Assembly: GCA_005281725.1 (NCBI GenBank)
Contig: SSBO01000013.1
Coordinates: 119,100-183,099, forward strand
Length of the DNA: 64,000 nucleotides
Direction of reading: 5' to 3'
Origin: Wuchereria bancrofti
Taxonomy: Eukaryota > Nematoda > Chromadorea > Rhabditida > Onchocercidae
In this document: piece by piece, positions 3,204-46,732 of the stretch
Position numbering within the stretch: the first letter of the stretch is position 1
How the letters are laid out: every line of letters starts with the position of its first letter
The notes under the pieces: model-generated
Seen by the model: the letters and a program-made list of their open reading frames with translations, nothing else
The model's database searches: none
Told to the model about the DNA's origin: nothing
Translations under genes and position numbers: made by a program

Positions 3204-3250
3204 AGGAGGAACGAAAAGAGGGAGAGAGAGGGAAAGAGAGAGAGAAGAAA
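3204..3250. repeat. GA-rich microsatellite
   Basis: Purine-only GA/GGA/GAAA tract with interrupted (GA)n runs. Similar GA tracts occur near 3544, 17812 and 51161. Confidence 0.8.
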
Positions 3251-7938: not shown

Positions 7939-7947
7939 TACAAACCT

Positions 7948-10433: not shown

Positions 10434-13400
10434 TTACGACTTTCCAGCAGAAGTGTTTACACCTCCTATGATATTTGTTGACATATTTCGACGATGATCA
10501 TTACTAGCATCGATTTCTGGCAAAAGTGTGCCCAGAACACGTTCTTCAATTATCGGATCCGGATAATACGGTTTCGGATTAGTTGAGCTAATAATCTAGA
10601 AAGAAATCAACGTTCAATTTTCAATTTATATAGTATAAAACATTGCGTCCGATAAAAAAAAAGTTATTTAAAAGACATATCAAGCATTTAAAAAATTCAA
10701 TGTAAGATAAAACAAATAAAAAAAAAAGAAAACAAACTTTTCCTGAAGTATACATTACACGACCTGGCTTCATTGCGTCCACAACTCGAGTGAGGTCATC
10801 AGCCTGGAAAATATATCAATTATGGGGTTTCACCCAGTAAACGTTAATTTTTATTAATTTCCCATTTTTTCTTTTTTTTTTTTGTTCTTGAAAAAAAAAA
10901 TCATGATAAGACCATATTAATTTATAGGAATGCTATGTTACAAAAAAAAAAAAACAACATAATATCTAAATACAATACTGAATGAATATCTAAATACAAT
11001 ACATTACTCCGTACTTGTCTCTGTGTCATGCATGGCAGAACGTTGCCCGGCAGCACATAACCCCTTGGTGCAAGATGCAGTTTATCACAATGTCTGTATT
11101 GCAAGTGAGTTCGCATGTCGGAACAGAAAAATGAACCACAACCGCACAATGAGCAACGTAAACGCATAATGCGTAAATGACTCACAGCATGCCGTCGTCC
11201 CTCCTGCAATTTTGCATTAAAATGAAATAAACCATGAGATCATTCCCAAGATTAATCAAATGAAACGAAACCTTCGCAATACCAATATGAATGTCCACGA
11301 ATTCTATGAAGAATAATGCACAATGATGTTGCAACATTATGTCACAATACGCACCAGTTTATGTAAGTATAAGGCTTGTCTTTGACCTGAGAGTATTCCA
11401 GAAGTGCTTTTTCAAGAATTAAAACAGAAACAACTCCAACCGATATGTTCGCAATAATGTCACCACATTGCATGCACTTATGAGCACTTGATGCACCATC
11501 ACTTGAAGGCGAAGCAGGACGGATGAACGAGAAAAATAGATCACGCTGTGTTTCAGTAAGGTAGACAGGAATTTCAGAGAGATCCTTTGGAAGAGATGCT
11601 TCACCATTTGAGTAACGTACAATCTAAACAAAAATATGGTTTTAAAAGAATGGAGAAAGATTTTTCGAGTTTACCGCAAGCTGATTTGAACCTGAAATTA
11701 ATGTCACAATGTCAAACAAATACCAAACTGACAAAACCAATTTCAAAAATAGAAATTGTCAGTTGATTTGTTAAAGTTTTAATTTCCAAAAAATCTGTCC
11801 ACAAACTAACAAACATACCATAACTTCATCATTATTTTCTCGGATTGTTGAGAGATCTTGCTTACGACGAGACTGCGATGCGGGACGCCCATCACCTGAT
11901 GCTACGTTTGTGTTGTCGCTTGTTGTCTGTCCCCTTATATCTTTCGAGGTGCTTGCCATTTCTTCTTCATCTGCAACTCACTTTATTTCTAGTAAGAATT
12001 TCCCACACATTCACGTTCCATGATATGTAAGTAAAAGTATGACTAACCAACGTTAGACAACAAATCATCTCCATATTTCATCCTTCGAGCTCGTGGAGTA
12101 TACTGTAAACGACAAGTTTTCTTGGTCTGAAATTAGCAGCAAAATGTCAACAATTTGATGAGTCATATTAATGGTAGAAAATATTAGTATTACATTAATG
12201 ACGAAAACACTACCATTATATCTTTGGTACATTCTGCACCACTTGAAGAAGGCCCAGTTGAAGATAAGGGAAGCGGCGATTGTGCTGCACCATCGTTCAA
12301 TTCGTGGCTATTGCTCGCAACGCTGCTATAACAAACAAATAGAATTTTTCTAAGATTTGTCTTAGATTGCCAAACATGAGACAGATCAAAAACATATTAC
12401 AATGCTTGAGAACTAACTATGCGTTTTCATGTGGCGCAGGAGTCGAAGAGTTCGATGTTTCTTCGCTGCTTGCCTCCGACTGAATACCAGGAATGGCACT
12501 AGAAGGTTCAGTAGGTGTTGAGCGTCGACTATTCGCACTTTTAACACATTTTGGTTGGGTCCTCGATGGCGATCGACTTTGGCCTGTTCTTGATGACGGT
12601 CGACTTTGATTCTTTGGCTGTGCACATTCCGAATCCATATCATCGTCATCGCGACGAGAACGTTTGTTCCTAAATTTCATACATGGATATGAAGCTATGA
12701 GAATTAAAGTCTTCAGTACGAATATTTATTCGCTAATTACTCATTTTATCCAAACAATTCATAATAATACAATAATACACAACTACCGAACTGAGAAAAA
12801 AAGATAAAAAAGTATTCACGAGAATACTTACTTAAAACCGGTGACATAATTCTCATCAATCCAATTTGGTTTACGACGCTGACGTGAAGGACGCTGTTTA
12901 CGACTGTCTTCCGCCTGAAAAACAGAAAATAAAAAATTTGACATAATCTAAGCTGCATTTATGGTCAACAAATATATTCACTGAACATGCACTTACTTCG
13001 TCACTATTTCCACTCAGCTCATCTTTTTCAATATCGTTCTTCGGTGCTTGTCCAGCTCTTGGTTTCGGCCTACGCCCTCTACCACGTTTTTTTGGTAGGT
13101 CAGTCTCATGCTTTCCTTCATCATCACTTTCTTGCGAAATCTTAAAAAATAATACGACTCAATTTTCTCCTAAAGACTCTTAATTTTTGCCTTCCTTAAA
13201 CAAATACCCTGCTAGGACCAGCTACTTCATCCATCGGTACATTTTCCATACGTTTACGCGCTGTACGAAGCCATACAGGTGGGCCATGTTTTTTCTTCTT
13301 CGAAATTGATGGACTCACTTTTCCAAGCTGAAAAGCAAATTTTCCGAAACATGACATACCTACAAAACAACTTTCTCAATAATTAGTAAGGTTTCGAGTA

Positions 13401-15930
13401 TTTTGCAACGTCAGAACGTCAAAACAAACCTGCCCTGCCTTTCCGTGACCAAGACGTGGACGTCCCTTCGATCGTATTTGTGGCGTCGAAGATTCATTCT
13501 AAATTTTAAACCGTTCTTAACTCTCATAACTTACATCATTCAACTTTTGCACCAAATCTCAGTTCTTGCTCGTTTTTGATGAAAATATTTCTTAAAATGA
13601 ATGAATCACATAACTTACAGACAAATCCTGTGCATTTAACTCATATTTGCTGTCCTCCAACAATGGAGCCTTTTCGACATCACCACACACAACCCCAATG
13701 ATGTAATCCATACGATCCTTTACTGCCTGAAAGTTATACCTGTATTATGAAAGACATCATGGTGATCCTAAAAAAATAGTTACAGCAGCAAAATATACCA
13801 ATTCAATATTTTCAGCCTCCATATTTGCCATCAATTCCAGCACAGGAGCTGAGTCATATCCAATCTCTTCCGACCCATCAGACGATTCTTCCGTCTCAAG
13901 AAAATCATCGGATAATGGACTCAAGCTTCGTCCCCGCATTAGTACTATCTTAAACAAGAAATTTCCGGAAGTGAAATTAATGAAAGTCTGTTAAAGCTTT
14001 ATTACAGTTGCGTATCAAGCTCAAACCATAGGTAATAGGTAAAAGCAAAATAATTTTCTACCTTTGCCTGCTTCCCCTTTCGGCCTCGTTTAAGTTCTTC
14101 TGATGTCGAACGTGCTGTAACGTGTTCCTGATAATACTGTTCATGCGCACTTTTCAGATGTTCGATCAGTGCAGTGTAACTGAAATATTAGCAACAGTGT
14201 ATGACAAACATCTTTATCAGTTATAGATGAGTGTCACCAGATGCATTTGAATACTTATAATCAGCAACAACACGCACGTCTGAAATTCAAAATCACATAG
14301 ATAACATGGGATTCGCTTGTTCGATGTAGCACGGCGATTATGTTTTACAGTAAGATGATATGCAAACGTGAAGAGTGATGAAAACGGTTGCTTTTCCTTG
14401 CAATCACTGTGTGAGCAAGTAAGCAAGCTCAAATCAACCATCATTGTTTGATATTTGCCCATACGTTCCAAGATTTTAAGCTGAAATTGCAAAAAACATT
14501 AAAAAGATTTACAAGTCATGCAATTTGATCTCCAAGAAGAAAATAAAATAAAATACTTCTTCGGTTCCAACTTTCCGTGCGACACCATTCTTTGAGCTAT
14601 CACCTTTACGATTTCGCAAATTCATTTCTCGATATCGACTTGAATTGTCTTGGGGAATAACAACCGCAACACGATCTGGTGGTACCGTATCCACTGTTAC
14701 CAATGCATGAGGGATTGATTCCATGATCTGGAAAGGTTTATCTCATTCATATTTTGGTTTGAATTTCTTTTAATTCAATTTTTTCAACTCCATCCCACTA
14801 TTCATAAAAATCCATAAAAATAAAAGAAAGAAAGGGAACTGCGCAAAGCCACCTGTTGTCCTTCTACGAATGTTGTTGTTGCCACATCACGAGAGATACG
14901 GGGAAGTGTGTGCAATTCCAATTTGTGCTGTAAACAAATCCATAACAAAATGGAATTCAAATTAAAGACTGGCAGAAATTTATAACCTATCTTCCTCCCT
15001 CTTTTTCGTCTTCATATATATCACATATCCCGACATTATTAATAAATGATACAACTAGTCGTTACAAACAGACAAACTTCCGAATTCGGTAGTGACAATG
15101 CATAGTGTTTTATCCGCTTGTTGACAACGTTGATAAGATTTGTTCGCTTGAGAATGCCTTTGGCACGTTTCGGCGGCTGTGAATCGGTTTTCGTGCCGGA
15201 CGACGTTCCTGCCTCTCCTTTATTCTGCTGTTGTGGTGATGCTCCTTCCTTTCTACTTTGGTCGCCATCTCGAAGTTCTAAAAGGTTTCCTTATTTGATA
15301 AGTTGATAATTATCCTTATTTGATAACAGATATAACTATGGAAAGATCGATCAAAAAATCACTCTTAGTGCAAGGCGTAATTTTAACTGACAATGGCTTC
15401 AGTGTCACGACAAATTCCTCGTCACTTTTTCGACTTTTCCTTGATTTTTGAATTGAATGAGATCCCAACAGCTTTTAAAGAAAGTGCTTACCCGCAAGCG
15501 CTTTTTCCGCAAAATCTAAAGCCACAGCACTGAAAGCCGACGCAACAGTCGAACGTAATGTACGGCAATAGACGCGTTTGTGTGTCAGATAATTCAAACT
15601 ACTTCGAAAGATATTACCACAGCAACTGTAACTTCACTATTAAAAATCAACATTTTATTTCACAGTTCTTTTCAGAAAAAAAAAATTAAAAAATCGAGAA
15701 GTCCATGCAATAGAATTTGCAAATGAGATTTAATTGGTTGGAAATTTCTTAAGACAATGACAAAAATGAACTCACCGACATTCGAAAAGAACATTGCATT
15801 CGTTTGCCAATAAATTTTTCACTTCAACGGTTGAGCTGTTGTATATATCTATTAAACCATCAACACCATCAGATCCTCCGGTTGGTATGGAAGGTTGTTG
15901 AAGGCCCAAGTCATCAACACTCCGCGACAT
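10434..15930 (-). CDS. ZNF800-like C2H2 zinc-finger protein, copy A (complete)
   Basis: Probably a nuclear DNA-binding regulator; its targets cannot be read from sequence. I read 21 minus-strand exons: 15930-15776, 15625-15492, 15277-15078, 14927-14853, 14727-14557, 14480-14278, 14179-14062, 13948-13784, 13726-13619, 13498-13430, 13327-13208, 13140-12997, 12914-12832, 12669-12418, 12325-12214, 12126-12048, 11970-11819, 11623-11441, 11203-11015, 10803-10738, 10595-10434. Phases close to 979 residues. The N-terminus (VKNLLANECNVLFECRCC, then FRSSLNYLTHKRVYC) resembles the N-terminal finger of vertebrate ZNF800. Further C2H2 fingers: C267-C272-H287-H292, C304-C307-H320-H325, C830-C833-H846-H850 and C858-C861-H874-H879. 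Basic AT-hook-like motifs lie at about 454-460 (KGRPRLG) and 523-534 (KKRGRGRRPKPR). Long Ser/Thr/Pro-rich segments lie between. Two fingers are split by introns. Family assignment is by recalled similarity; exon structure is firm. Confidence 0.82.
11241..12893. repeat. duplication block 1, copy A
   Basis: Appears base-for-base identical to 31714-33366 (constant offset 20473), including introns. It carries exons 14-18 and most of exon 13 of the zinc-finger gene. The borders are abrupt: on the left, exon 19 is badly decayed in copy B; on the right, exon 13 begins to differ within a codon. Confidence 0.9.
13488..14800. repeat. duplication block 2, copy A
   Basis: Appears identical to 34076-35388 (offset 20588), covering exons 5-9 and the start of exon 10 with all introns between. 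Both sides pass abruptly into diverged sequence (12894-13487 and 14801-15889). Confidence 0.9.
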
Positions 15931-18900
15931 ATCTTTTTGTACTTGTCGATATTATTGATATTTGCAAAAGACTACAAAAACAAAAAGAAAGAAGCAATTT
16001 TAATTTGATTTCCAAATAAATAAAAAACCCAAAACATCTTATAAATTTCATTGCTAACGAATGCTTATTCAATTTCCAACAATTTTTTACTACCAAATTT
16101 TGGTACATTTACTTGAATTGACTCATTTCCTTCTTTTTCCTACAATTTTGTAAGAATTACATTTCTCTCTGCAACATACACCATGAGAATCATCCAAGAA
16201 ATTGAAATTCTAGGGCACTACTAAAGATATACATTTCGGGATATTGTGATTTCATACTGCGACATGCGATCAACTTACCGTATACCAGCCTCAGTGAATC
16301 GGAATTTGTATTATGTAAGTGAGGATTTCCGGAAGAGAGGAATACAGTTCGATATGAATAAGGACGAATTAAATTTCAGGAAATCGCAAAGGTATGTTTT
16401 ATTCGCTAACGAAAGCAAAATAAACACCGCACTGCAAAAGAGGGAATATTGAATATGCATAACTTGATCAGTAAGAACAAGAACGGAAGATACGATATGA
16501 CTAGAATAAATTCTGGAAATAGAAGTATTCTGGAATTCAAAAAAAAAAGAAAAAAGCACTAAGATTAAAATGACAGTGGATATCAATAAGAATTCATAAG
16601 ATTTGAATAGGTAAAGTGACCTCTTTCCATCCTTATCATGAAATTAAGATCAACTAAACGTAATGAAGTAAATTAGAGTAATATTATTCACTTCACAAAT
16701 AATACCAGTTATTTACGTATTAAATCAAAGTAATAAGCTTTTCGACGACCTAATTAACTGTTACAATACAATAGGAATGAATATTTTTAAAAAACCAAAA
16801 ATAGTTTCAATTATTGAGATTAATGAAACTAATGAAAATTAACCGTTAAATGTAAAGGTGGAATAAAATAGAGCAGAAGTATGAATAATGAAGTCATGTC
16901 GTTGATAGTATCAACATGAGCAAAGAGTTACGAAGAAATTTAAGCCTGAAATTCATGCTATTACATCTGAAATGAAAATCGATTGTAGATGTTTCCTGAA
17001 TGATAACATTGATGGATGATGATATGTTGTTAAGGGTTATCATAAATTACAGTATAAGTAAATTAGGATTATCATGATGATCAATCATAGAAAGAAAACG
17101 GTCCCTAATACATTTAACATGAATCATAATTGATAAGAGGAGAAATCAAAAAGTGGATTTTATGGAAAATTATGATTGATAAACTATTGAACAAATTTCC
17201 AGTTAGCATTAAACATGCTTCAAAGAACGAAAAAGAAGTCTATGTTATTAGTATGTAGATTTTTAGTCGAGAGTTCTCAGTCTTATCCATATTTTGCTAT
17301 GACAAAGATAAATGTATTCTTATCAATGCTTTAATTACAACAAAAAAAAACAGTAGTTTACTAGTTAATAAATTAGTTGAACAAAAATATAGAATGCAAA
17401 TGTTTTTGGTATGCCAAATGATCGAACATTTTTTTTTTCTGGGTATAAGCAAAAATTGATAATATATCTATCTTGGCTACAAATAAACATTAGTATCACG
17501 GGCTTACAAGAAATGTAAAAAATTGATAGAAGAATTTTCTTGCAAACAAATCTGAACTTGCTTAACTGAAATTGAAAATGAATTATTCACTTCATTTCAT
17601 TTTGCACTTATTTTCTTGTTTTTTTGGAAAAGAGAAAAATTTGCTCGAATAATCGAATTATCAACTCTTTCAAATTAAGACAGCCAATCAGTCGTAATAG
17701 TAGATAAGGTTGTTAAACATTTAACATAATTACCACATTTTTCTAAAATAACCTATCTATTATGATTCCCTTAGAACAATAATAAAAAGGATGATGAAAA
17801 AATGAAAGTGAGAAAGAGAGAGAGTGTTAAGCTGCAATGAGTTAGAAAATTCAAATTTGCGCAATTATTATGAATCTTGAAATGTCCCAAAAAGTCGATA
17901 TTTCTGCATCAATATCTCGTCATTACGATATTTGATTTATTTGAAGCAGTGGATTTTATCTTTGAAATTATTGATTGATTAAATACATTTCACTGGAAAA
18001 TTGAGTTGAAATGACAAATGAAGTTGCATATCAATCTAAACTATATGTTAACATTTGAAATAATGAAGGTAAAATATGAAGAAAGATGGCAAAGTAAAGT
18101 ATTCAAAGAATTAATTTTCATAATAATCTTTTGATATATTTTGTCAATAGATAAGCAAAATAATTTTATAAGTATTACTATTTCTTTTTTTCTCTATCCA
18201 TTCTATAATTCAACTAATAACAGTAATGAAAATAGCAACAATTTTTAACTAACTAATTAATTAATCAAAATTAAAGTATTATCGGTAAGACCAATTGCAT
18301 AGAGAGAATTGGTACATACTGTCGCGTAATAAACCATTGTACAACAAACGATAATCATTTGAAACACTACACAATATACAAAGAAGGAGGAGGAGGAAAA
18401 AAAGCACTGGGGGATAGCAGAAGACGAAATGTTAGAGTAAATTGTAATCGAGGATGAAAAATAATTGGAATTTTATTGCTGAAATACTGGAATCAATAAT
18501 TCGCATATAAAGCTACAAAAATGAGATGAAAGATTTTTCAAGTCAAAGAAGTATAAATTTTTAGTACTGACAGTAGAATTATTCTATTGCATAACACTTT
18601 ACACATTTCACATTCATCATCTGTCAGGAAATAAAATTTGGCAATGCAACAGATAAATTAAGTAAGTAATATGGAATTGACAGGAATAAAGTGTCGGTAT
18701 ATGGCACCACCGAGAATACGTAGTTACCGATCAAATAGACGAATATGGAATATTAAGTTAAATATGTATATATATATATAATATGGAATATTAAGTCAAG
18801 GTAAGCGATAATCACTCCAACTGCTGCATAATGCCATCAAGAAAACATAGGTAAGAGTTGACCCTTGTCCACTCCTATCCTTCACTTCCTTTCTCCTCAC

Positions 18901-20848
18901 ATCCGCCTCATTTCTATCACAAACTTCCATGTCAATTATTTAACAATAAGTGAAAAAGCGTGAAACATGATGTTATCGAATAAAGAAATACATATTTTAT
19001 ACTACTTAACCAATCAATCTTAAAACGGTCTTACATGAATTAGAATTTTATGATTTTGAACAGTTTACACTCTACGTATGCAATATTTGGAAGAAATGAA
19101 AAAGATAAATAAAAAAAGTTTGATTAAAAATTAAATCGATACTGTTATTTAAGCGAGGACACTGATATTACGGAAGCCGGAAATATTACTAACAAAAAGT
19201 AACTATTTCATACATATATTAATAATCTATGCTAACCGTTAAAAACCAGTGTTCCGAAAAGTGGAGACCTACTCGGAATCTCGAAAGTTTGACAATGAAA
19301 ATACCTATCAGAAGCTTATGAGAATTTCTCGGGGAGAGCAATTGACGAATAGTCCCGAAATTGCAGAAGGAAAATTTGTTTATTCAGTAGTTTTTGTCTT
19401 AAAGTGACCATTGCGTCGTTGTTAATCAGAATCGATCAATACTGCTATAATATTAATACTCTAAGATACTTTCATGTTCACAAAACATTCATCAATGAGA
19501 AGTTTGTAGGGCATTGGTACCAAACTTATATGAATTGATAAGAATTGGACATCGGTACCAAAATAAAAGTCACAGAAATCATTTACTTTGAACTCATTCC
19601 CCAAATTAATTTTGCATAATTTCGATAACTTTTTCCGTCCCACTTTTCAGTAAGTCAACGTCAAATGTTAACGTGTGAACGTCTTATACAATACAATTTA
19701 GTGCTACGTGCAATCAGTGTTGAAAGTGTTACTTAATGAGCATACCTGAAAAAGTGAGTCTTAGAGAAAAATATTATTTTTCTTACATGTATCACACGCA
19801 TCACAATTCACAACTACGTAAGAATAACTTAGTGTTACAATTACAAGAATAAACTGGTAATTCAATTCCAATTTAATTCTTATCTCACTCAGAAGTATTC
19901 AACTTCATATCGCACTAAATTCCGAGATTTAAATTGTGCGCTTTCGGGGAATTTGTAACCAACGAGCGAGCTCCAATATGCAAACTGCCTGTACTACTGA
20001 AATGGACTTGAAATTAATTTTGGGCGCTTCACTGTTCTTCTCGGTATTAACCAGTAATTGGAATGTAAAGGAGCTAACGAAATCTCAAAAATGATAAGTG
20101 AACTCAGATTCCGAAAAAATAATCCGACAAACATTAAAGGTCAAGTAAATATTGCTAAGTTTCATCCTACAATCAAATCAGAAACCGTCTTTTGGCGGAA
20201 AGAAGTAATTCCGCTTTCCATTTAATGAGTACAATTAATGCTAAAATGTAGAATATTTCCGCGAGGCATCTTTTGTATAATCCGAAAACTTTTTTCATTT
20301 TTAATTTATTCGCGAATAGCATTTATTTTATACGACGCACTACACACTTAAAGAGTAAAGATAACCAATTAGTGATCTTATCAGACAATTGTATCAATGG
20401 AAAGATAAGAGATACGTTTGGCTGAGGTTTAGGTAATCAAGGAGCCTATGCATTAAATTATTTATCCGTTCGATGATTTAGGGATTTCCGAGCAGAAATA
20501 AAAAAAAGAAGCTAAGTTAGTTTTATATTATCGATGGTATGAAGTGTTTCCACTCTCACATTTTTATTGAAGTACATTTTAATTAAGCAAAGAATTTTCT
20601 ACAACACGGAAATATATTCTCTAAGAATTTATTAATTAATTATCAAAGAAAATGCAGGATGTGCAACAACTGTATAAAGTCATGCATATTCCATATTCCA
20701 ACAAATGTAACAAAAATTACAGACCACATATAGCCTAAATCTATACTATTCATATCAGTTCATTTGTTTTAATTGAACTACTTCAGTTGAAAATCACAAA
20801 CTTTTTTACGAACACTTAACACCATATCAACATTTTAACATTATTTTA
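15890..20848. repeat. duplication block 3, copy A (5' end and 5' flank)
   Basis: Nearly identical to 36522-41478 over about 4.96 kb. I find only a few differences, clustered between about 16466 and 16525: two single-base deletions and three substitutions. From about 16530 to 20848 I see none, even in homopolymers and the TATATA tract near 18767. It starts inside exon 1 and contains the putative promoter but no recognisable gene. The right end at 20848 is sharp. Confidence 0.9.
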
Positions 20849-23350: not shown

Positions 23351-24052
23351 TATTCCGGTGATAAAATATTGGTGACTTATTGTTTCTTTATATGGTAACA
23401 GTAAATTTAGTAATCGTAGTCCATGTTATTTTACATTGTTATTGTTTCTTTTGTTTCCCGATATGTTCATATGTATAAAATTTTCATTTATTGACATTGA
23501 TACTGCTGTTCACTGACTTCCCATTCAGGAAATTATTTTTTCTAGTTTCCATCTTTTCTATTTTCTAATAAATGAAAAAAAGCGACAACTTCTTGGAATA
23601 ACGGAGATTGATCTTTTTTTCGGTATTGGAAGAAATTACAAACAACGATTTGTAGTAAGCAGAAATGGTTAAAACAGTGTGAATTTCGAATTTTTGTGTA
23701 GGATGTGGTTAGTAAGACAACAGTGTTTTATATATGTATGGGGTCGATCCATTAATCTACTAAATTTGGCATTTCTGAACCAGGCAGGAAGGCTCGTTTT
23801 CTGTTTTTGTTTTTCTTTTTGTGTTATTTGATTTCTTAGGGATATTTCATATAAAGGTTGCTGGTCTCAGATAATTAAAAATTCTACTGAAGAAAGTGGT
23901 TATTGATTGTTATCATTAAAAAGAATGACGATGGAATGTGAGATTTTCTGCGCATTTTTTCTTTAAGCTCTTCAGAATTTACTGCTTTTTGTATTCTATT
24001 TGCATGATTTCTTGATTTATTTAGACGTAAGAGTTGTGACACATCGAGTGAA
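23351..24052. other. spacer between ELP4 and MTG1
   Basis: About 700 bases without a recognisable gene. It contains a possible poly(A) signal for ELP4 (AATAAA at 23567-23572) and, at its right end, a TTTATTTAG acceptor about 29 bases before the MTG1 start. Confidence 0.6.
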
Positions 24053-26058
24053 ATGCCAAGGGTACAATGTCGAGAACGTTATCAGTTGCCTGTGAAATTT
24101 GATTTCCGTGTCTGGTTTCCCATGCATATGTCTATACAGCTGAAACGTATGATCGGTAAATTGAGAACAGTTGATCTTATCGTTGAAGTAGGTACTTTAA
24201 ATAGTCTGAGTTGCTAATCTTAAAGAATTGCTACTCCCTACTACAAAATTGTTATCTCTTCTGATGATGAACCAATACTTCACAGTTGTAGTATCGATAA
24301 GTGTTTCAAGCAGTTCATTTTTCAAATGTGATATCCAATCTCATTTTTTTTTTTAAATTTCTAGGTACATGATGCTCGAGTGCCAATCACTGGACGTAAC
24401 CCTCAGTTTTATTCGTCTTTATATGCCGTAAGACCACATATTCTTGTAATGAATAAAATGGATCTTATTAATGAGAATTTAAGGTTTGAATATTTACATA
24501 AGTGTTCATAATGTTTCAGATCCTCTCAACTTTGCTAGAATTACTATTAGTACGATTTCTCATTGACTTTACATGAATTACAGTGTAATCTGTTAAGATG
24601 GATTCAAATTCTGATCTGATCATAAACGACTTCACTCATTTTTCTTTCTCCAACTATTATGAAATTGCAATTTAAGAAAACCAATCGAAGATTATTATCG
24701 TGATAACGGTATAACGAATTTAGTATGGACAAATTGTAAAAAACGTCTCAAGAAACCACTCGTAGACTTACAAAATATGATGTTACGATGTCTTCGTGAA
24801 GAACCACGTTTCAATCGAACTGTAAAAACAGAATACCAGGTTGATGTTCCCGTTATGTTTCCGTTATGTAAGTAACTTCATCAACCAGCTGTTAAGAAAT
24901 TTATTGTTGAAATAAGTAATTTTACTGCTGTCATTGAAAATTTCCCTCTACAGATTAATAGTCAACTATATCAGCAACGATTAAAGAATATATTATCGTA
25001 ATTAAGCGCAATTCAAGAGTCAACGCATGTTTTGAGTTCTTAATATTTTCACTTGATCCTGCTTTGATGTGTGAAAAACTTCTTATGTTATAGGTTATGA
25101 TAGTAGGCATTCCTAATGTTGGCAAATCGTCACTGATCAACTCACTACGACTAACCAATCTTGGGAATAATCAGAAGGCTGTTGAGGAAGGTAAACCATT
25201 TCTCAGATTATGTCGAAGTTATTACTACTATAAAACATATTAGAAAACTTTTTTTTAGTGAGTCAGATTGTTTGAGAATTTAGAAAACGATATTTAATGC
25301 GAATTATGTCTCGTAGTTAAAAAGCATTTATCAGAGAGCATGATGTTGTCTAATTAATTTAGGAATTAGATTGTTTGCAGTTCAATAATTACACAACTGC
25401 TAGAATGTAAATATAGTTTGAAAAAAAAATGTGAACTATTTTAAAAATTTTAGGTAGTAGACCAGGAGTAACAGTACGTGTTCAAAATCGTGTACGAATT
25501 TTTGATCAACCACCAATATATATAGTGGACACACCGGGAGTATTGAATCCATTAGCACGAGATGCAGATGGTGCAATGAAATTGGCATTGTGCAATCTTA
25601 TCTTGGAAAGTGCTACACAAATTCACTATGTTGCTGACTATCTGTTGTACTGGTTAAACAAGTAAATTTAAATCTGTGTTTTTCAATAACTATATTTTAG
25701 AACTATCTAAGCCTACACTGAAGACAACAACTCAATAATATTTTTACTTGTACCAAAAATAAATTGCGAAGTGTCATCAGGGCACAATTCTGTGAAAAAT
25801 TGCAGGACAGGTGATTATTCTTATGTCGAAATTTTCAATCTGAAAAATGGGCCATCGGATAACATACACAAAGTGTTGTTGGATATATGTCAATCTAATG
25901 ATATTCGTTTTCAAAGCTATATTGCTGGACAACGAGCTGAACGATGGGACATTGATAGGGCAGCTAAATCGTTCACCAATATGTTTCGCAACAACAAACT
26001 ACGTAATCACTGTTTAGATATTGATCTTTTACTGGATTATATGAATAAAGATGAATAA
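24053..26058 (+). CDS. MTG1: mitochondrial ribosome-associated GTPase 1
   Basis: MTG1 is a circularly permuted GTPase (YlqF/RbgA type) that helps mature the large mitochondrial ribosomal subunit at the matrix face of the inner membrane. Six exons: 24053-24187, 24365-24483, 24677-24839, 25094-25190, 25454-25661, 25806-26058, giving 324 residues, close to the human protein. The permuted motif order is visible: G4 NKMD at 75-78, then G1 GIPNVGKSS at 144-152, G2 PGVT ending at Thr178, and G3 DTPG at 197-200. Other family segments are FRVWFPMHMS at the N-terminus, VHDARVPITGRNP, ADYLLYWLNK and the C-terminal AAKSFTNMFRNNKL. ELP4 lies 700 bases upstream on the same strand, so a loose operon is possible but unproven. 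Confidence 0.93.
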
Positions 26059-26801: not shown

Positions 26802-28171
26802 TTAAAATCGACTCGTACCGGCTTCTTTCAACAATTTTTCTAGACGTCCATCCTTTTGTGCAGCTACCGTGTCATCACTACCTCCAATACATTTTCCACC
26901 AATAAAAACACGTGGAACTGATCTAGCTCCTGTTAATTGCAGTAATATATCCTAAAAAAAAGAGAAGCGAATAATAAGTAATAAAAAATATAAACGTTGG
27001 TCTCCGCATGGTCAGATCTGTTAACAACTTTTATACAAACTGTTCAGACATATATTTATTTTAAGAGTAGCTAGGTCGGATGTAGTATTATTAATTCTTA
27101 TGTTGTGGCTCATTTTTATTATATTTTAGTGATTAGATGCTGTTTATGGTATTTTTTGAGGTTTTTGTTAATGATTGCCTTACATGTTTCATTTTTATAC
27201 GTTTCTGCCTTATATGTTGCATTGTGTTTCTTTTGATGGTTTATTGATGATTGCCATTTTTTCGTTTTTTTCTTCATTCGCGCTAATATAATTTTTTTTT
27301 CCTATGCATTTTGCTGATATACAAGATAAACCTCGTAAGGTTTTAGATTACCCTTATTGTTAATTCTATATTCCAGGTACATTCTTCTTCCGGTTCTATT
27401 ATTACTTCTATTGGTTAATATTGTTTAATTATTTGATGATTGAATCTATTTTTTTAAGTATTTCTTTTTATAATAGACAAATATATATGATGGAATAAAT
27501 TATCTGTTACTAATAAATTACTAACAATACAACAGCACAACAACATTTAATAAATTTGTTATTAAACGAAGTACTTTCCACGTAACGTAATGAAGTTGAC
27601 AAAGCTCACCTGGATTTTATCGCAATCCTCTCTTTCGTCCAATTCAATAATTTTATATAAATCATCGCGCATTCGAAATGTACTTAGTGCTCGCTTTGCA
27701 TTCCTGAATTGACAGAAATGTGAGGAAATTTTATGTGCAAAATAAAAAAAAGAACATTTCCGCGTCATTAGTACAATGAATGACCTTTAGGCTTGAAACG
27801 AAACTGCATGCCAAACAATTATAAATTAGCACCCAGAAAAAATTTCTTTTCATTTAAATGAAAAAATTTTTTAAACAAGTTGTTTCATTTATCGATTAGA
27901 TTTTTAGTAACTTTCAATAGTAGTGACACCTTTTTGATTTACACAAATTAACGAAATATATTTGTTGTCATGTTTCGTTATTATCCAATATTTATCATAA
28001 CATTATCCTAATGTAATAAGTAAGATGATTAAATCACAATTAGCAGAATTAGTTACAAATAATCAAAACATACTTGCAATATGGGCAATAGCTTTTACTA
28101 AAAACAACAACTGGAGTTGACTTTGTTAAATTGGTAACAAATGTGTATGGATCTATATTTACATTCGACAT
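26802..28171 (-). CDS. dithiol glutaredoxin (CPYC)
   Basis: A small thiol-disulfide oxidoreductase that uses glutathione to reduce protein disulfides and mixed disulfides. Minus-strand exons: 28171-28074 (coding part of an exon that begins at 28183), 27703-27610, 26951-26802. From the ATG at 28171 it encodes 113 residues, a normal single-domain length. Active site CPYC at 29-32 within VVVFSKSYCPYC; the cis-proline segment GARSVPRVFI has Pro77; the glutathione-binding GGSDDT is at 87-92. Upstream, the reading frame stays open through the acceptor at 28183 (Thr-Ser-Ser-Arg before the Met) and is in phase with the last exon of the VIMP-like gene, so the domain may instead be the C-terminus of a larger fusion protein. 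A decayed copy of its middle exon lies at 31257-31385. Confidence 0.92.
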
Positions 28172-28310
28172 TCTTGATGATGTCTGAAATAATTGAACGA
28201 TTAACTTAATCCTATTATTATTTGTAATATTAATTTATTTTTTTAAATACTTGATGAAATATTCCAATAAAACAAAAACCAATAACGCAATATTTACTAA
28301 TAAATATTAC

Positions 28311-29092
28311 CATAATTCCTTGTAGATACTTTTGTTTCTTTACTTTCAAATGTTTATATGCTTCGACTACTTTATTATTCAATTCCTGTTGAGCTTTTTC
28401 ACGAGCTATTCGTATACGATCACCGTATGCTTCTTGTAGTTCAGCGTCTACAATATTTTTTAAACATTGCAAAATTCTTTCCAATTTAACATATTTTTTT
28501 ATGAATAAAAAATTGCTTATCCATATAGGAGATGCTATGTGTTCTCCATAAAACAAGATTATTTTTCATAACGGTTAAATTAATTACATTTTAAAACATA
28601 ATAAATTAAACATATTTTATTAATAATAATTACTGAAAATGTATGATCCAACAAGAATGGATATTTCGAACTTCTGGAAACAAAAGCTGACTGCATAATT
28701 GAAAAAAAAAAAGATCAGTTTTTATTTAACTATTGCTATCAATAATAATATACATCATTACTGAGAATGATATCAATAAGCTTGAATAACCATTTCTCTA
28801 AAAATTTGTCCTGAAAAACTTTGTCAAAACGTATGATAATCTATCAAGAATTTGTTTTACAGCTTCGTTTTTTTCTTCACAATTTCGACTTGAAAATTGT
28901 AAAACTTATAAAACGAATATAAATTGCTTATTAAAAATGAATAAAATGAACATATCAGACCAAATTTTTTCCTTCTTTCTAGCTCCTTTCTCTGTTGAAT
29001 ATCTTGATAGAACGATAAGATAAATTTCTTATACACAAAATGAAAAACTGTAAGAATTCCCAATATCAACCAACCGTATTCCACGAAAATAT
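28311..29092 (-). CDS. selenoprotein S / VIMP-like membrane protein (partial, 5' exon not found)
   Basis: VIMP is a single-pass ER membrane protein that links derlin to the p97/VCP ATPase in ER-associated degradation. Two minus-strand exons are visible: 29092-28961 and 28447-28311, joined in phase 1. They encode a hydrophobic segment (EYGWLILGILTVFHFVYKKF), matching the YGW-type transmembrane segment of VIMP, then a charged helix (IQQRKELERRKK), then a coiled-coil-like helix with AREKAQQELNNKVVEAYKHL, like the AARLKMQEELN region of VIMP. No selenocysteine tail is seen. If the donor after Met at 28311 is used (GTAATA), the frame continues into the glutaredoxin exon; if not, it ends at a TAA at 28230. 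The first exon begins with an acceptor (TTGCAG) at 29093, so an upstream exon carrying the start is missing. Family assignment rests on short similarity. Confidence 0.55.
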
Positions 29093-31256: not shown

Positions 31257-31385
31257 ACAAACTACTTTCCACGCATCACAGAGAGGTTGACAAAGATCAC
31301 TTGCATTTTACCGCAATCCTCTCAATGATTTTTATATAGATCATCGCGCTTTTGAAATGTATTTAGTAGTTACTTCGCATTCCTA
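31257..31385 (-). pseudogene. decayed glutaredoxin exon
   Basis: Aligns with the middle exon of the intact glutaredoxin and its borders (27570-27705): shared ACTTTCCACG, GTTGACAAAG, TCACTTG/TCACCTG, CCGCAATCCTCT, TTTATATA, ATCATCGCGC, GAAATGTA, TTAGT and GCATTCCT. About 14 bases are lost after CAATCCTCT, breaking the frame, and the donor side is altered. The flanking third exon is absent, so this is a relic, not a gene. Confidence 0.85.
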
Positions 31386-31479
31386 AAATATTTTTGCATA
31401 AAAAGTATTTCTGACAAAAGAATAGAGGTGTGTTTCTCATAAAATTGATAAAATAACACTGAAGGACTATGAATATTTA

Positions 31480-31680
31480 AATATAGTAGGTCACTTCTAC
31501 TTGCATCTGTGTTACACACAGCAAAACATTGCCTAGCAGTAAGTAACCTGTTGATGCAAGATGAGATTTATTTCACTCTTTATCTTGCATGTGAGTATAT
31601 CGGAACAGGAAAATGAGTCACATCCACACAATGAGCAATGTGCAAATGAGTCACACACCATGCAGCTACCTTATTCTAAT
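31480..31680 (-). pseudogene. decayed last zinc-finger exon of copy B
   Basis: Homologous to exon 19 of copy A (11203-11015), which carries part of finger 3 and all of finger 4. Shared stretches include TGCTCATTGTG, TTCCTGTTCCGA-like sequence and CATCTTGCA. About 14 bases are missing after CATTTG, shifting the frame, and the altered frame soon meets stops. Exons 20-21 of copy A have no counterpart here. Confidence 0.8.
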
Positions 31681-31713
31681 TTGGTCTTTAAATAAATAAA
31701 GCGGTAGCAATCC

Positions 31714-33366
31714 CATTCCCAAGATTAATCAAATGAAACGAAACCTTCGCAATACCAATATGAATGTCCACGAATTCTATGAAGAATAATGCACAATGAT
31801 GTTGCAACATTATGTCACAATACGCACCAGTTTATGTAAGTATAAGGCTTGTCTTTGACCTGAGAGTATTCCAGAAGTGCTTTTTCAAGAATTAAAACAG
31901 AAACAACTCCAACCGATATGTTCGCAATAATGTCACCACATTGCATGCACTTATGAGCACTTGATGCACCATCACTTGAAGGCGAAGCAGGACGGATGAA
32001 CGAGAAAAATAGATCACGCTGTGTTTCAGTAAGGTAGACAGGAATTTCAGAGAGATCCTTTGGAAGAGATGCTTCACCATTTGAGTAACGTACAATCTAA
32101 ACAAAAATATGGTTTTAAAAGAATGGAGAAAGATTTTTCGAGTTTACCGCAAGCTGATTTGAACCTGAAATTAATGTCACAATGTCAAACAAATACCAAA
32201 CTGACAAAACCAATTTCAAAAATAGAAATTGTCAGTTGATTTGTTAAAGTTTTAATTTCCAAAAAATCTGTCCACAAACTAACAAACATACCATAACTTC
32301 ATCATTATTTTCTCGGATTGTTGAGAGATCTTGCTTACGACGAGACTGCGATGCGGGACGCCCATCACCTGATGCTACGTTTGTGTTGTCGCTTGTTGTC
32401 TGTCCCCTTATATCTTTCGAGGTGCTTGCCATTTCTTCTTCATCTGCAACTCACTTTATTTCTAGTAAGAATTTCCCACACATTCACGTTCCATGATATG
32501 TAAGTAAAAGTATGACTAACCAACGTTAGACAACAAATCATCTCCATATTTCATCCTTCGAGCTCGTGGAGTATACTGTAAACGACAAGTTTTCTTGGTC
32601 TGAAATTAGCAGCAAAATGTCAACAATTTGATGAGTCATATTAATGGTAGAAAATATTAGTATTACATTAATGACGAAAACACTACCATTATATCTTTGG
32701 TACATTCTGCACCACTTGAAGAAGGCCCAGTTGAAGATAAGGGAAGCGGCGATTGTGCTGCACCATCGTTCAATTCGTGGCTATTGCTCGCAACGCTGCT
32801 ATAACAAACAAATAGAATTTTTCTAAGATTTGTCTTAGATTGCCAAACATGAGACAGATCAAAAACATATTACAATGCTTGAGAACTAACTATGCGTTTT
32901 CATGTGGCGCAGGAGTCGAAGAGTTCGATGTTTCTTCGCTGCTTGCCTCCGACTGAATACCAGGAATGGCACTAGAAGGTTCAGTAGGTGTTGAGCGTCG
33001 ACTATTCGCACTTTTAACACATTTTGGTTGGGTCCTCGATGGCGATCGACTTTGGCCTGTTCTTGATGACGGTCGACTTTGATTCTTTGGCTGTGCACAT
33101 TCCGAATCCATATCATCGTCATCGCGACGAGAACGTTTGTTCCTAAATTTCATACATGGATATGAAGCTATGAGAATTAAAGTCTTCAGTACGAATATTT
33201 ATTCGCTAATTACTCATTTTATCCAAACAATTCATAATAATACAATAATACACAACTACCGAACTGAGAAAAAAAGATAAAAAAGTATTCACGAGAATAC
33301 TTACTTAAAACCGGTGACATAATTCTCATCAATCCAATTTGGTTTACGACGCTGACGTGAAGGACG
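31714..33366. repeat. duplication block 1, copy B
   Basis: Partner of 11241-12893; see that entry. The left border lies immediately beside the decayed exon 19, so identical and badly diverged sequence touch within a few bases. Confidence 0.9.
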
Positions 33367-36300
33367 TCGTTTACGACTATCTTCAGCCTGAAAAATAAAA
33401 AATTAAAATTCTACATAACCTCAAATCAATCACATCAACAAATATGTCATTGAAGATGCAGCAGTGACCAGATACAAACTTCGTCACTATTTCCACTCAG
33501 ATCATTTTTCCCTATATCTTTCTTCGGTGTGTGTCCAGCTTTTGGTTTCGGCTTACGTTCTCTACGTTTCTTCGGCGGTTCAGTCTCCTGTTTCTCGTCT
33601 TCATCATTTCCTTGCAAAGTCTTGAAAAAATCAAGTTTATAATATGCAATAATGTTCAGTGCCGGAATATTATTTAAGATCTAAATAGCTTCTCCAAAAC
33701 AATTTGGTTTACAGTGTTGACGTGAAGGACGTTGTTAGTTCAACTTCTCCTTTCCAACGACTGCAACTGCTAAATGCTCATCAATTACTGTCTCATGACT
33801 TCTTTAAATACATACCTTGCAAAAACCAGGTACCTGACCAATCGATATATTTTCCACCATTCGTTTACGCGCTGTGCGAAAGCGAATCGAAGGCACATGC
33901 TTTTTCTTTTTCGAAACTGATGGATCCAATTTTGCAAACTTAAAAACGGACTTTTCACTACATTAATGTTTGCAGTATAATTTTTCGAAAAATTAGTGTA
34001 ATGTTAAAACAAACCTGTCCTGTCTTTCCGTAACTAAGGTGTGGACGCTCGTTTGATCGTACTTGCGACCTCGAAGAAGATTCATTCTAAATTTTAAACC
34101 GTTCTTAACTCTCATAACTTACATCATTCAACTTTTGCACCAAATCTCAGTTCTTGCTCGTTTTTGATGAAAATATTTCTTAAAATGAATGAATCACATA
34201 ACTTACAGACAAATCCTGTGCATTTAACTCATATTTGCTGTCCTCCAACAATGGAGCCTTTTCGACATCACCACACACAACCCCAATGATGTAATCCATA
34301 CGATCCTTTACTGCCTGAAAGTTATACCTGTATTATGAAAGACATCATGGTGATCCTAAAAAAATAGTTACAGCAGCAAAATATACCAATTCAATATTTT
34401 CAGCCTCCATATTTGCCATCAATTCCAGCACAGGAGCTGAGTCATATCCAATCTCTTCCGACCCATCAGACGATTCTTCCGTCTCAAGAAAATCATCGGA
34501 TAATGGACTCAAGCTTCGTCCCCGCATTAGTACTATCTTAAACAAGAAATTTCCGGAAGTGAAATTAATGAAAGTCTGTTAAAGCTTTATTACAGTTGCG
34601 TATCAAGCTCAAACCATAGGTAATAGGTAAAAGCAAAATAATTTTCTACCTTTGCCTGCTTCCCCTTTCGGCCTCGTTTAAGTTCTTCTGATGTCGAACG
34701 TGCTGTAACGTGTTCCTGATAATACTGTTCATGCGCACTTTTCAGATGTTCGATCAGTGCAGTGTAACTGAAATATTAGCAACAGTGTATGACAAACATC
34801 TTTATCAGTTATAGATGAGTGTCACCAGATGCATTTGAATACTTATAATCAGCAACAACACGCACGTCTGAAATTCAAAATCACATAGATAACATGGGAT
34901 TCGCTTGTTCGATGTAGCACGGCGATTATGTTTTACAGTAAGATGATATGCAAACGTGAAGAGTGATGAAAACGGTTGCTTTTCCTTGCAATCACTGTGT
35001 GAGCAAGTAAGCAAGCTCAAATCAACCATCATTGTTTGATATTTGCCCATACGTTCCAAGATTTTAAGCTGAAATTGCAAAAAACATTAAAAAGATTTAC
35101 AAGTCATGCAATTTGATCTCCAAGAAGAAAATAAAATAAAATACTTCTTCGGTTCCAACTTTCCGTGCGACACCATTCTTTGAGCTATCACCTTTACGAT
35201 TTCGCAAATTCATTTCTCGATATCGACTTGAATTGTCTTGGGGAATAACAACCGCAACACGATCTGGTGGTACCGTATCCACTGTTACCAATGCATGAGG
35301 GATTGATTCCATGATCTGGAAAGGTTTATCTCATTCATATTTTGGTTTGAATTTCTTTTAATTCAATTTTTTCAACTCCATCCCACTACTTCTCACAAAA
35401 ACATTTAAGTTATAAAAAAAGTTACCTGCAGCCCTGCTGTTGTTGCCACGCCACGAGAGATACGGGGAAGTGTATGTAATTCCAATTTGTGCTGTAAACA
35501 AATCCATAACGGAATGAATCTAAACTAATTACTGACAGGGATTCCTAATCTATCATTTCTCCGCACACAGATATCGCGCCGCAAGATAACTAATACACGG
35601 TTGAATTGGTTGCTACAAACAGACTAACTTCCGAGTTCGACAGCGATAATGCAGATTGTTTTGAGTGTTTTACGACGTTGGTAAGATTCGTACGCTTGAG
35701 ATTAGTTTTGGTGCGTTTTGGGGGCTGTGAATCGGTTTTCGTGCCGGACGATGTTCCTGCTTCTCCTCTGTTCTGCTGCTGTGATGCTTCTTCCTTTTTA
35801 CTTTGGTCGCCGTCTCGAAGTTCTGAAATGGATTATTTCTACTGCAAATATATCATTTTTAGTCCCTACCGCTACTTCATATACCTTTTAAACTGCAACA
35901 AGATTTCCTTATTTAATAACAAATATAACTATAGAAAGCTTGACCAAAATATCACTCTTGGTGTGAGTTTTAATTTTAATTGACAGTAGCTTCAGTGCCA
36001 TGACAGATATCTCTTCACTTTTTGATTTCTGAATTTGAATGATTTTTGGAAATGTAATTTTTGAATTGAATGACATTCCCTATATTCCTTCTTTTCAGAA
36101 AGCGTTTACCTGCAAGTGCTTTTTCGGCAAACTCTAGAGCCGCAGTGCAGAAGGCCGATGCAGCAGTTGAACATGACATACGACAATAGAAACGTTTATG
36201 CGTCAGATAGTCCAAATAATCACGAAAAAAATTGCCGCAACAACTATAACGCTACCATCAAAAATCAAAATTTTCATTTTACAGTCAATTTCAAAAAAAA

Positions 36301-36562
36301 ACCAAAAAAAGTTTATGCAATACAACTTGCAAACTAAATCTAACTATTGATACAAATAATTGCAAATTTTTGGATGCACCCTAAAATAATCTCAAAAATG
36401 AACTTACCGACATTCGAGAACAATACTGCATTCGTTTGCCAATAAATATCTCACTTCAGCGGTAGAATTGTTGTATATGTCTATTAAACCAATAACACCA
36501 TCCAATCTTCCGGTTGGTATAGAAGGTTGTTGAAGGCCCAAGTCATCAACACTCCGCGACAT
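31815..36562 (-). CDS. ZNF800-like zinc-finger protein, copy B (C-terminally truncated paralog)
   Basis: Eighteen exons corresponding to exons 1-18 of copy A can be read: 36562-36408, 36243-36110, 35822-35629, 35491-35426, 35315-35145, 35068-34866, 34767-34650, 34536-34372, 34314-34207, 34086-34015, 33938-33816, 33620-33480, 33387-33305, 33142-32891, 32798-32687, 32599-32521, 32443-32292, and the last from 32096. All keep the frame, even where they differ in length from A (exons 3, 4, 10, 11, 12 differ by multiples of three). With no intact exon 19 the last exon would read on to a TGA at 31815, giving about 869 residues without fingers 3 and 4. N-terminal finger CRCCGNFFRDYLDYLTHKRFYC is intact. 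Both AT-hook-like motifs of A are changed (SNERPHLS; KKRRERKPKPK). It could be a shortened functional protein or a gene on its way to decay. Confidence 0.65.
34076..35388. repeat. duplication block 2, copy B
   Basis: Partner of 13488-14800, apparently identical, covering exons 5-9 of copy B with introns. Confidence 0.9.
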
Positions 36563-39500: not shown

Positions 39501-41478
39501 ACTCCTATCCTTCACTTCCTTTCTCCTCACATCCGCCTCATTTCTATCACAAACTTCCATGTCAATTATTTAACAATAAGTGAAAAAGCGTGAAACATGA
39601 TGTTATCGAATAAAGAAATACATATTTTATACTACTTAACCAATCAATCTTAAAACGGTCTTACATGAATTAGAATTTTATGATTTTGAACAGTTTACAC
39701 TCTACGTATGCAATATTTGGAAGAAATGAAAAAGATAAATAAAAAAAGTTTGATTAAAAATTAAATCGATACTGTTATTTAAGCGAGGACACTGATATTA
39801 CGGAAGCCGGAAATATTACTAACAAAAAGTAACTATTTCATACATATATTAATAATCTATGCTAACCGTTAAAAACCAGTGTTCCGAAAAGTGGAGACCT
39901 ACTCGGAATCTCGAAAGTTTGACAATGAAAATACCTATCAGAAGCTTATGAGAATTTCTCGGGGAGAGCAATTGACGAATAGTCCCGAAATTGCAGAAGG
40001 AAAATTTGTTTATTCAGTAGTTTTTGTCTTAAAGTGACCATTGCGTCGTTGTTAATCAGAATCGATCAATACTGCTATAATATTAATACTCTAAGATACT
40101 TTCATGTTCACAAAACATTCATCAATGAGAAGTTTGTAGGGCATTGGTACCAAACTTATATGAATTGATAAGAATTGGACATCGGTACCAAAATAAAAGT
40201 CACAGAAATCATTTACTTTGAACTCATTCCCCAAATTAATTTTGCATAATTTCGATAACTTTTTCCGTCCCACTTTTCAGTAAGTCAACGTCAAATGTTA
40301 ACGTGTGAACGTCTTATACAATACAATTTAGTGCTACGTGCAATCAGTGTTGAAAGTGTTACTTAATGAGCATACCTGAAAAAGTGAGTCTTAGAGAAAA
40401 ATATTATTTTTCTTACATGTATCACACGCATCACAATTCACAACTACGTAAGAATAACTTAGTGTTACAATTACAAGAATAAACTGGTAATTCAATTCCA
40501 ATTTAATTCTTATCTCACTCAGAAGTATTCAACTTCATATCGCACTAAATTCCGAGATTTAAATTGTGCGCTTTCGGGGAATTTGTAACCAACGAGCGAG
40601 CTCCAATATGCAAACTGCCTGTACTACTGAAATGGACTTGAAATTAATTTTGGGCGCTTCACTGTTCTTCTCGGTATTAACCAGTAATTGGAATGTAAAG
40701 GAGCTAACGAAATCTCAAAAATGATAAGTGAACTCAGATTCCGAAAAAATAATCCGACAAACATTAAAGGTCAAGTAAATATTGCTAAGTTTCATCCTAC
40801 AATCAAATCAGAAACCGTCTTTTGGCGGAAAGAAGTAATTCCGCTTTCCATTTAATGAGTACAATTAATGCTAAAATGTAGAATATTTCCGCGAGGCATC
40901 TTTTGTATAATCCGAAAACTTTTTTCATTTTTAATTTATTCGCGAATAGCATTTATTTTATACGACGCACTACACACTTAAAGAGTAAAGATAACCAATT
41001 AGTGATCTTATCAGACAATTGTATCAATGGAAAGATAAGAGATACGTTTGGCTGAGGTTTAGGTAATCAAGGAGCCTATGCATTAAATTATTTATCCGTT
41101 CGATGATTTAGGGATTTCCGAGCAGAAATAAAAAAAAGAAGCTAAGTTAGTTTTATATTATCGATGGTATGAAGTGTTTCCACTCTCACATTTTTATTGA
41201 AGTACATTTTAATTAAGCAAAGAATTTTCTACAACACGGAAATATATTCTCTAAGAATTTATTAATTAATTATCAAAGAAAATGCAGGATGTGCAACAAC
41301 TGTATAAAGTCATGCATATTCCATATTCCAACAAATGTAACAAAAATTACAGACCACATATAGCCTAAATCTATACTATTCATATCAGTTCATTTGTTTT
41401 AATTGAACTACTTCAGTTGAAAATCACAAACTTTTTTACGAACACTTAACACCATATCAACATTTTAACATTATTTTA
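36522..41478. repeat. duplication block 3, copy B (5' end and 5' flank)
   Basis: Partner of 15890-20848. The difference cluster lies near 37098-37155. The right end at 41478 is followed by sequence that resembles, at low identity, the stretch just inside the border (TTGAACTGATCCAGTTGAAAACTGCAAAC versus TTGAACTACTTCAGTTGAAAATCACAAAC), suggesting a short repeat at the breakpoint. Confidence 0.9.
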
Positions 41479-46655: not shown

Positions 46656-46732
46656 ATTTGATTATATTCATTCAGCATGATAATAATTTCATTATTATTG
46701 ATTATATTCATTCAGCATGATAACATATTGGA
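46656..46732. repeat. short tandem repeat
   Basis: GATTATATTCATTCAGCATGATAA occurs twice, separated by TAATTTCATTATTATT. Confidence 0.8.

What the first reader, a model, noticed from the sequence alone, without database searches (positions are those of the whole stretch)
11241..20848. Mosaic segmental duplication: identical blocks alternate with diverged blocks
11.2-20.8 kb and 31.7-41.5 kb are copies of one region. Three blocks (11241-12893, 13488-14800, 15890-20848) look identical or nearly so to their partners, introns and microsatellites included. The stretches between them (12894-13487 and 14801-15889) are clearly diverged by substitutions and indels in both exons and introns. Borders are abrupt, some inside an exon. 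A single duplication date cannot explain both; repeated gene conversion between old copies can. The competing explanation is assembly: identical blocks could be one locus copied into two by the assembler.
Basis: partly seen in the sequence, partly recalled or inferred. Interest (0 to 1): 0.85.

Follow-up and report, generated by a model that had tools for sequence, protein, structure and literature searches.

The report
Paralogue pair patched by gene conversion
Two old neighbouring copies of a zinc-finger gene in a human filarial worm have become identical in three long stretches while short stretches between stay very different; relatives show the same pattern with their own sequences, so repeated gene conversion explains it better than an assembly mistake.

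Summary
Copies A (about 10982-20848) and B (31469-41478) share three tracts: 0 differences in 1653 bp, 0 in 1313 bp, 3 substitutions plus 2 indels in 4957 compared bp. The islands between differ by 24-31%. The genome matches Wuchereria bancrofti. A and B are orthologues of Brugia malayi Bm8116 and Bm8115, deposited as C2H2 zinc-finger proteins. Topology tests are opposite: in islands A pairs with Bm8116 and B with Bm8115; in tracts A pairs with B and Bm8116 with Bm8115. Acanthocheilonema viteae shows a similar mosaic with its own sequence. One assembler error cannot make this; a protein from another W. bancrofti contig also joins a B-type island to tract sequence on both sides. Best explanation: recurrent interlocus gene conversion, here A to B, between tandem copies older than several filarial genera. 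B ends in a copied glutaredoxin exon read in another frame. A third copy on contig C12 looks like a deletion between A and B; its age and linkage are unresolved. No reads were available, so polishing could inflate the perfect identity. Known process, new locus.

The parts
10434..15930 (-). Copy A gene: C2H2-type zinc-finger protein, 21 predicted exons, 972 aa; orthologue of Bm8116
   Evidence: Own splice-aware gene model; 95% identical to P0001 Bm8116 over the whole query. Pfam gives nothing above its cut-off; the zinc-finger name is that of the deposited relatives.
31341..36562 (-). Copy B gene: shorter paralogue, orthologue of Bm8115, open frame of 850 aa including the terminal exon
   Evidence: Gene model with the last exon corrected; exon-by-exon match to P0007.
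11241..12893 (.). Tract 1 in A, identical to 31714-33366 in B
   Evidence: 0 of 1653 differ
31714..33366 (.). Tract 1 in B
13488..14800 (.). Tract 2 in A, identical to 34076-35388 in B
   Evidence: 0 of 1313 differ
34076..35388 (.). Tract 2 in B
15890..20848 (.). Tract 3 in A: start of exon 1 and about 4.9 kb upstream, near-identical to 36522-41478 in B, ending at the end of the duplication
   Evidence: 3 of 4957 differ plus 2 indels, all within 16466-16522
36522..41478 (.). Tract 3 in B
12894..13487 (.). Middle island in A (AT-hook-like basic segment; that label is recalled)
   Evidence: A-B 153 of 562 bases differ; B counterpart 33367-34075
14801..15889 (.). N-terminal island in A
   Evidence: A-B 251 of 1037 bases differ; B counterpart 35389-36521
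33367..34075 (.). Middle island in B
   Evidence: 100% only to itself; 67-81% to C12 and A in the own genome
35389..36521 (.). N-terminal island in B
   Evidence: 71-76% to A and C12 (query 35400-36520)
16466..16522 (.). Small patch with the only differences of tract 3; B has the C12 state at 4 of the 5 positions
31341..31382 (-). Terminal exon of B (ends ECEVTTKYISKAR, stop), a copy of a glutaredoxin exon read in another frame
   Evidence: 38 of 38-base blocks at 89.5% identity on both halves of the exon copy, acceptor AG at the same place; same kind of end in Bm8115
26819..28447 (-). Glutaredoxin gene in the spacer, the likely source of that exon (source exon about 27610-27703)
   Evidence: Pfam PF00462
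21754..23347 (+). ELP4 (PAXNEB family) in the spacer
23703..26055 (+). MTG1 (mitochondrial GTPase 1) in the spacer; identical to the W. bancrofti protein apart from exon-end overhangs
41906..47274 (-). Peptidase M16 gene right of B (probably mitochondrial processing peptidase alpha; that name is recalled)
   Evidence: Pfam PF00675 and PF05193; gene model

Best explanation
A and B are old tandem paralogues of one zinc-finger gene, separated by ELP4, MTG1 and a glutaredoxin gene. Ectopic recombination without crossing over (interlocus gene conversion) has copied A onto B in this lineage over three tracts of 1.65, 1.31 and 4.96 kb, recently enough that almost no difference has arisen since. The islands between, which hold the N-terminal exons and a basic middle segment, were not copied and keep the old divergence. 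The same two coding blocks were homogenised separately in the Brugia malayi and Acanthocheilonema viteae lineages. Shown: mosaic, opposite trees, species-specific tract sequence. Inferred: direction, recency, and that islands persist because their low similarity (or selection) stops strand exchange.
For: Opposite topologies: N-island and mid-island prefer A+Bm8116 / B+Bm8115 (rivals rejected, AU p 6e-8 and smaller), the two coding tracts prefer A+B / Bm8116+Bm8115 (rivals AU p 2.6e-6 and 8.7e-7), five sequences each. Residue identities: A-B 144/183, 255/255, 69/117, 272/272; Bm8116-Bm8115 113/161, 250/250, 65/108, 237/254; Avit1-Avit2 111/187, 241/250, 82/120, 136/143 for N-island, block2, mid-island, block1. 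A. viteae residues 225-399 are 175 of 175 identical between its two copies. Silent divergence A-B is 0.49 and 0.46 in the islands and 0 in both tracts. Direction: tracts differ from the C12 copy by 6.6, 8.3 and 10.1%, like A's islands (3.9, 9.8, 7.7%) and unlike B's (32.9, 27.7, 23.9%). Independent W. bancrofti contig P0009. Gene conversion tracts in nematode introns and exons are known (PMC3966223, section 4 part 1 read).
Against: No reads or read depth. Perfect identity could be sharpened by polishing with multi-mapping short reads. A's islands have no second W. bancrofti witness. Tract 3 (4.96 kb) exceeds the longest tract in the review of C. elegans pairs (12-2958 bp, mean 117), so several events may be merged. 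The Loa loa (140/188, 214/250, 84/118, 46/62) and Litomosoides pairs (93/160, 178/212, 23/48, 138/197) show no near-identical block, so homogenisation is not recent everywhere.
Confidence: 0.9

Rival explanations
1. Assembly artefact: the tracts exist once and were placed in both copies, or polishing made two different sequences identical.
For: The assembly does contain unmerged joins: the N at 51519 abuts two copies of 1660 bp that are 99.94% identical, and the C12 locus has an N-bounded duplicate.
Against: No N in or between A and B; five clustered differences inside tract 3; P0009 from another W. bancrofti contig joins B-type island to tract sequence on both sides; the B. malayi and A. viteae pairs show the mosaic with different sequence.
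Confidence: 0.06
2. Strong purifying selection alone keeps the tracts identical between copies of one age.
For: Some tracts are coding, and the gene is constrained (A-C12 dN/dS 0.23 overall).
Against: Introns, silent sites and 4.9 kb upstream are identical too, while the same tracts differ from C12 by 6.6-10.1%; silent divergence is 0 in both coding tracts against 0.46-0.49 in the islands.
Confidence: 0.01
3. Unequal crossing over or a recent re-duplication, not conversion, homogenised the copies.
For: Tandem direct repeats can do this, and C12 looks like the deletion product of such an exchange.
Against: Crossing over replaces whole stretches and changes copy number; here B-type islands with B-type ends sit on both sides of tracts 1 and 2 and the flanks are unchanged. 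It would need several double exchanges.
Confidence: 0.03

Closest known systems
Interlocus gene conversion between Caenorhabditis paralogues (for example fog-2/ftr-1, zim/him-8; PMC3966223, outline and section 4 part 1 of 2 read)
   Same: Adjacent same-strand paralogues in a nematode, mosaic tracts, introns included, more frequent at short distance
   Different: Tracts here are 1.3-5.0 kb against a reported C. elegans range of 12-2958 bp with mean 117; the copies are separated by three other genes; the pattern recurs across genera
Y-to-Y conversion of amplified Y genes, suggested for filarial worms by Foster et al. (PMC7181701, passages seen)
   Same: Filarial worms, duplicated genes, conversion proposed
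   Different: Bm8115 and Bm8116 lie on a contig whose length equals the B. malayi X (24943668), and the spacer carries housekeeping genes found only on C13 here, so this is not a Y amplicon
Escape from conversion by divergence or selected islands between converting duplicates (recalled: Rh blood group and similar cases)
   Same: Islands of difference kept between homogenised segments
   Different: No population or functional test of selection was possible here

Membership tests
Interlocus gene conversion between tandem paralogues | Different segments of the same gene pair support different trees | tested here: met
   AU tests
Interlocus gene conversion between tandem paralogues | Sharp borders with old divergence on both sides, inside homologous sequence | tested here: met
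   tract 3 ends at the end of the homology instead on its right side
Interlocus gene conversion between tandem paralogues | Non-reciprocal, with a donor and a recipient | tested here: met
   Tract distances to C12 match A and not B; indirect, as C12 is one outgroup copy
Interlocus gene conversion between tandem paralogues | Reads join recipient flank to donor tract | not testable with these tools
   No reads; protein P0009 is a partial substitute
Recent segmental duplication of a single date | Uniform divergence along the copies | tested here: not met
   0-0.1% against 24-31%
Collapsed or falsely duplicated assembly | Gap or join at the borders, no counterpart in other assemblies | tested here: not met
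   No N in or between copies; counterparts in B. malayi, A. viteae and W. bancrofti P0009
Collapsed or falsely duplicated assembly | Half read depth over the identical blocks | not testable with these tools
   No reads held
Y-linked amplicon with Y-Y conversion | Linkage to the Y | tested here: inconclusive
   B. malayi orthologues on an X-sized contig; ELP4 and MTG1 matched only on C13, which argues against a Y; no male/female depth

The most novel reading that the evidence does not exclude
The islands are held apart by selection or by rejection of mismatched heteroduplex for much of the filarial radiation, while the rest of the gene and its upstream region is overwritten again and again: two regulators that share one rewritten body but keep separate N-terminal and basic DNA-binding segments, B with an end taken from a glutaredoxin exon. 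In W. bancrofti the three tracts could even be one discontinuous event of about 9.6 kb. The same repeats then produced, by recombination between them, the C12 copy that lost ELP4, MTG1 and glutaredoxin, possibly on the Y.
Probability: 0.3. Interest if true: 0.7.

Novelty: new member of a known kind. Interest (0 to 1): 0.5.

Why it matters
The pair is a natural replicate experiment: similar blocks homogenised separately in Wuchereria, Brugia and Acanthocheilonema, and not recently in Loa or Litomosoides, so tract borders, direction and sparing of islands can be compared across lineages. It warns that paralogues in filarial genomes can be wrongly dated or called duplicates of assembly, and that short-read variant calls and marker design in the identical tracts of a human parasite will be unreliable. 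The B gene also shows how a duplicate gained a new end from a neighbouring gene's exon.

Tried and rejected
A first idea that C13 is a plain Y contig and C12 the X copy was dropped: ELP4 and MTG1 matched only on C13 (7 of 7 rows) and most of the M16 peptidase matched only there (7 of 9 rows; the 2 C12 rows cover residues 188-263 and 272-304 at 79%). I first took the stop in the C12 row as decay; C13 rows carry such stops too, from reading into introns, so it is not used. I also first took the C12 copy as older than the Wuchereria-Brugia split; the identities lean that way (A-Bm8116 185/188, 241/250, 109/118, 256/267; C12-Bm8116 179/188, 228/249, 104/118, 236/259), but the island tree joins C12 with Bm8116 (83.3/86) and the block trees place it variously, so its age is unresolved.

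A single ancient origin of all B-type copies is supported by the shared last exon (window B, Bm8115, Loa P0013, Litomosoides P0016, Cercopithifilaria P0141, by eye; my regular expression caught 2 of the 12 proteins printed), but the island tree gives only 94.6/69 for the B-type group and puts the Onchocerca ochengi copy with O. flexuosa (supports may be shifted by rerooting). The deposited A. viteae, O. ochengi and Elaeophora models do not show that end. Islands are not always spared: by eye the second half of the middle segment of P0141 is A-like.

Searches for a print record: Bm8116/Bm8115 0 papers; Brugia + gene conversion + sex chromosome 5 papers; Wuchereria bancrofti + gene conversion 10 papers; a four-of-five-term search 185 papers, 15 listed. 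Only PMC7181701 of these was opened, as passages; the Caenorhabditis review PMC3966223 (in the list) was opened at its outline and section 4 part 1. So a description elsewhere is not excluded.

Full report
What is there. The window is C13:119100-183099 of an 86.5 Mb genome in 108 contigs; C13 is 2.36 Mb and C12, which bears a third copy, 24.1 Mb. The genome matches Wuchereria bancrofti: the protein of the C12 copy agrees at all aligned residues with W. bancrofti P0002 (188/188, 249/249, 118/118, 259/259 with 8 gap columns, 146/146), and MTG1 in the spacer agrees with W. bancrofti P0021 apart from overhangs at exon ends (6 mismatches in one row, 1 in another, 0 in four).

The observation. Tracts 1 and 2 have no difference in 1653 and 1313 bp; tract 3 has 3 substitutions and 2 indels, all in 16466-16522, where B has the C12 state at 4 of 5 positions. 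Islands differ by 31.2, 27.2 and 24.2%. The longest run of variable sites with A=B is 403, against at most 29 in 10000 shuffles.

Genes. My splice-aware models give a 972-residue protein for A, a 960-residue protein for C12 and, after correcting the last exon, 850 residues for B, all on the minus strand. Pfam finds nothing above its cut-offs; deposited relatives are called C2H2 zinc-finger proteins. A is the orthologue of Bm8116 and B of Bm8115; both list the contig length 24943668, which is the length of the B. malayi X in Foster et al. (PMC7181701, passages). Between A and B lie ELP4 (21754-23347), MTG1 (23703-26055) and a glutaredoxin gene (26819-28447).

Why conversion. Of the 20 proteins I aligned 16 with A, B and C12 and counted identities by segment. 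A-B: 144/183, 255/255, 69/117, 272/272. Bm8116-Bm8115: 113/161, 250/250, 65/108, 237/254. A. viteae: 111/187, 241/250, 82/120, 136/143. Loa: 140/188, 214/250, 84/118, 46/62. Litomosoides: 93/160, 178/212, 23/48, 138/197. Across species the islands pair by paralogue: A-Bm8116 185/188 and 109/118, B-Bm8115 147/160 and 92/108. On five sequences (A, B, Bm8116, Bm8115, Dirofilaria) AU tests reject pairing by species in both islands and pairing by paralogue in both coding tracts. Larger trees (15 rows, 14 for block 2; four rows dropped: two partial, two that duplicate window copies or are partial) agree: B with Bm8115 100/100 in the islands, Bm8115 with Bm8116 98.6/100 in block 2 and 99.9/100 in both blocks together. 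Bm8115 keeps differences from Bm8116 in the stretch that is tract 1 in W. bancrofti (237/254), so the tracts of the two species do not coincide. A. viteae residues 225-399 are 175/175 identical, and five windows of block 1 give 123/125, around a middle of 15-21 of 25.

Direction and age. The tracts differ from C12 by 6.6, 8.3 and 10.1%, as A's islands do (3.9, 9.8, 7.7%), while B's islands differ by 32.9, 27.7 and 23.9%. So A-type sequence overwrote B. Silent divergence between A and B is 0.49 and 0.46 in the islands and 0 in both coding tracts, so the last homogenisation is very young relative to the duplication. The review of Caenorhabditis paralogues gives tract lengths of 12-2958 bp with mean 117 for 7829 C. 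elegans pairs and says long tracts may be several events (PMC3966223, section 4 part 1 of 2); tract 3 is longer than that range.

A captured exon. B's last exon, 31341-31382, follows an AG acceptor and reads ECEVTTKYISKAR and stop. It matches the glutaredoxin exon near 27610-27712 in two 38-base blocks at 89.5% but is read in another frame. Bm8115, Loa P0013, Litomosoides P0016 and Cercopithifilaria P0141 end alike, so the B gene with this end is older than the split of these genera. A. viteae, O. ochengi and Elaeophora models do not show it.

The C12 copy. It joins the left flank of A (window 8875-10662) to the right flank of B (41471-43087 and 49707 on), lacks the spacer, and lies between N positions; whether those N are gaps or withheld stretches is unknown. 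ELP4 and MTG1 matched only C13; only two stretches of the M16 peptidase matched C12, at 79%. This is the expected product of a deletion by recombination between A and B. Its zinc-finger frame is open and constrained (A-C12 dN/dS 0.23). C12 is X by size only. A Y-linked contig placed in an X scaffold is one reading; published Brugia Y contigs are divergent from the X and the Y arose in the ancestor of Brugia and Wuchereria (PMC10817185 and PMC7181701, passages). The trees do not fix the age of the C12 copy. The further flanks 1-8870 have no long match elsewhere.

Artefact. But A, spacer and B hold no N; a protein from a 6596-base W. bancrofti contig joins a B-type island (118/119) to both tracts (249/249, 272/272); and other species repeat the pattern. 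What remains open is whether perfect identity is partly due to polishing, and A's islands lack a second W. bancrofti witness.

Verdict. A real, recurrent case of interlocus gene conversion with spared islands; known process, apparently undescribed locus within the searches named.

Noticed in passing
49862-53179 (N at 51519): Two abutting copies of 1660 bp, 99.94% identical, with a single N between them: looks like an unmerged contig join.
   Followed up: partly
L005 5941-9233 (C12:11990940-11994232): Left flank of the C12 locus is present twice at about 88% identity to window 8875-10553, bounded by N at 5592, 7356 and 9234-9252.
   Followed up: no
31341-31382 and 27610-27712: A glutaredoxin exon copy serves as the last exon of the B gene in another frame.
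   Followed up: yes
47045-47275: Dispersed repeat with matches on many contigs (257 matches for the 18.9 kb query in all, not all of them this repeat).
   Followed up: no
27056-27480: Spacer repeat with copies at 68-75% on C12 and C7.
   Followed up: no
21754-23347: No Brugia or Wuchereria ELP4 is among the best 120 of 1049 proteins listed for the spacer query, though other filarial ELP4 proteins are.
   Followed up: no
6881-7366: Minus-strand open frame resembling cyclin H (recalled, not searched).
   Followed up: no
P0009: The deposited W. bancrofti protein has 20 extra residues in the middle island and reads past exon 18, probably retained introns in its gene model.
   Followed up: partly
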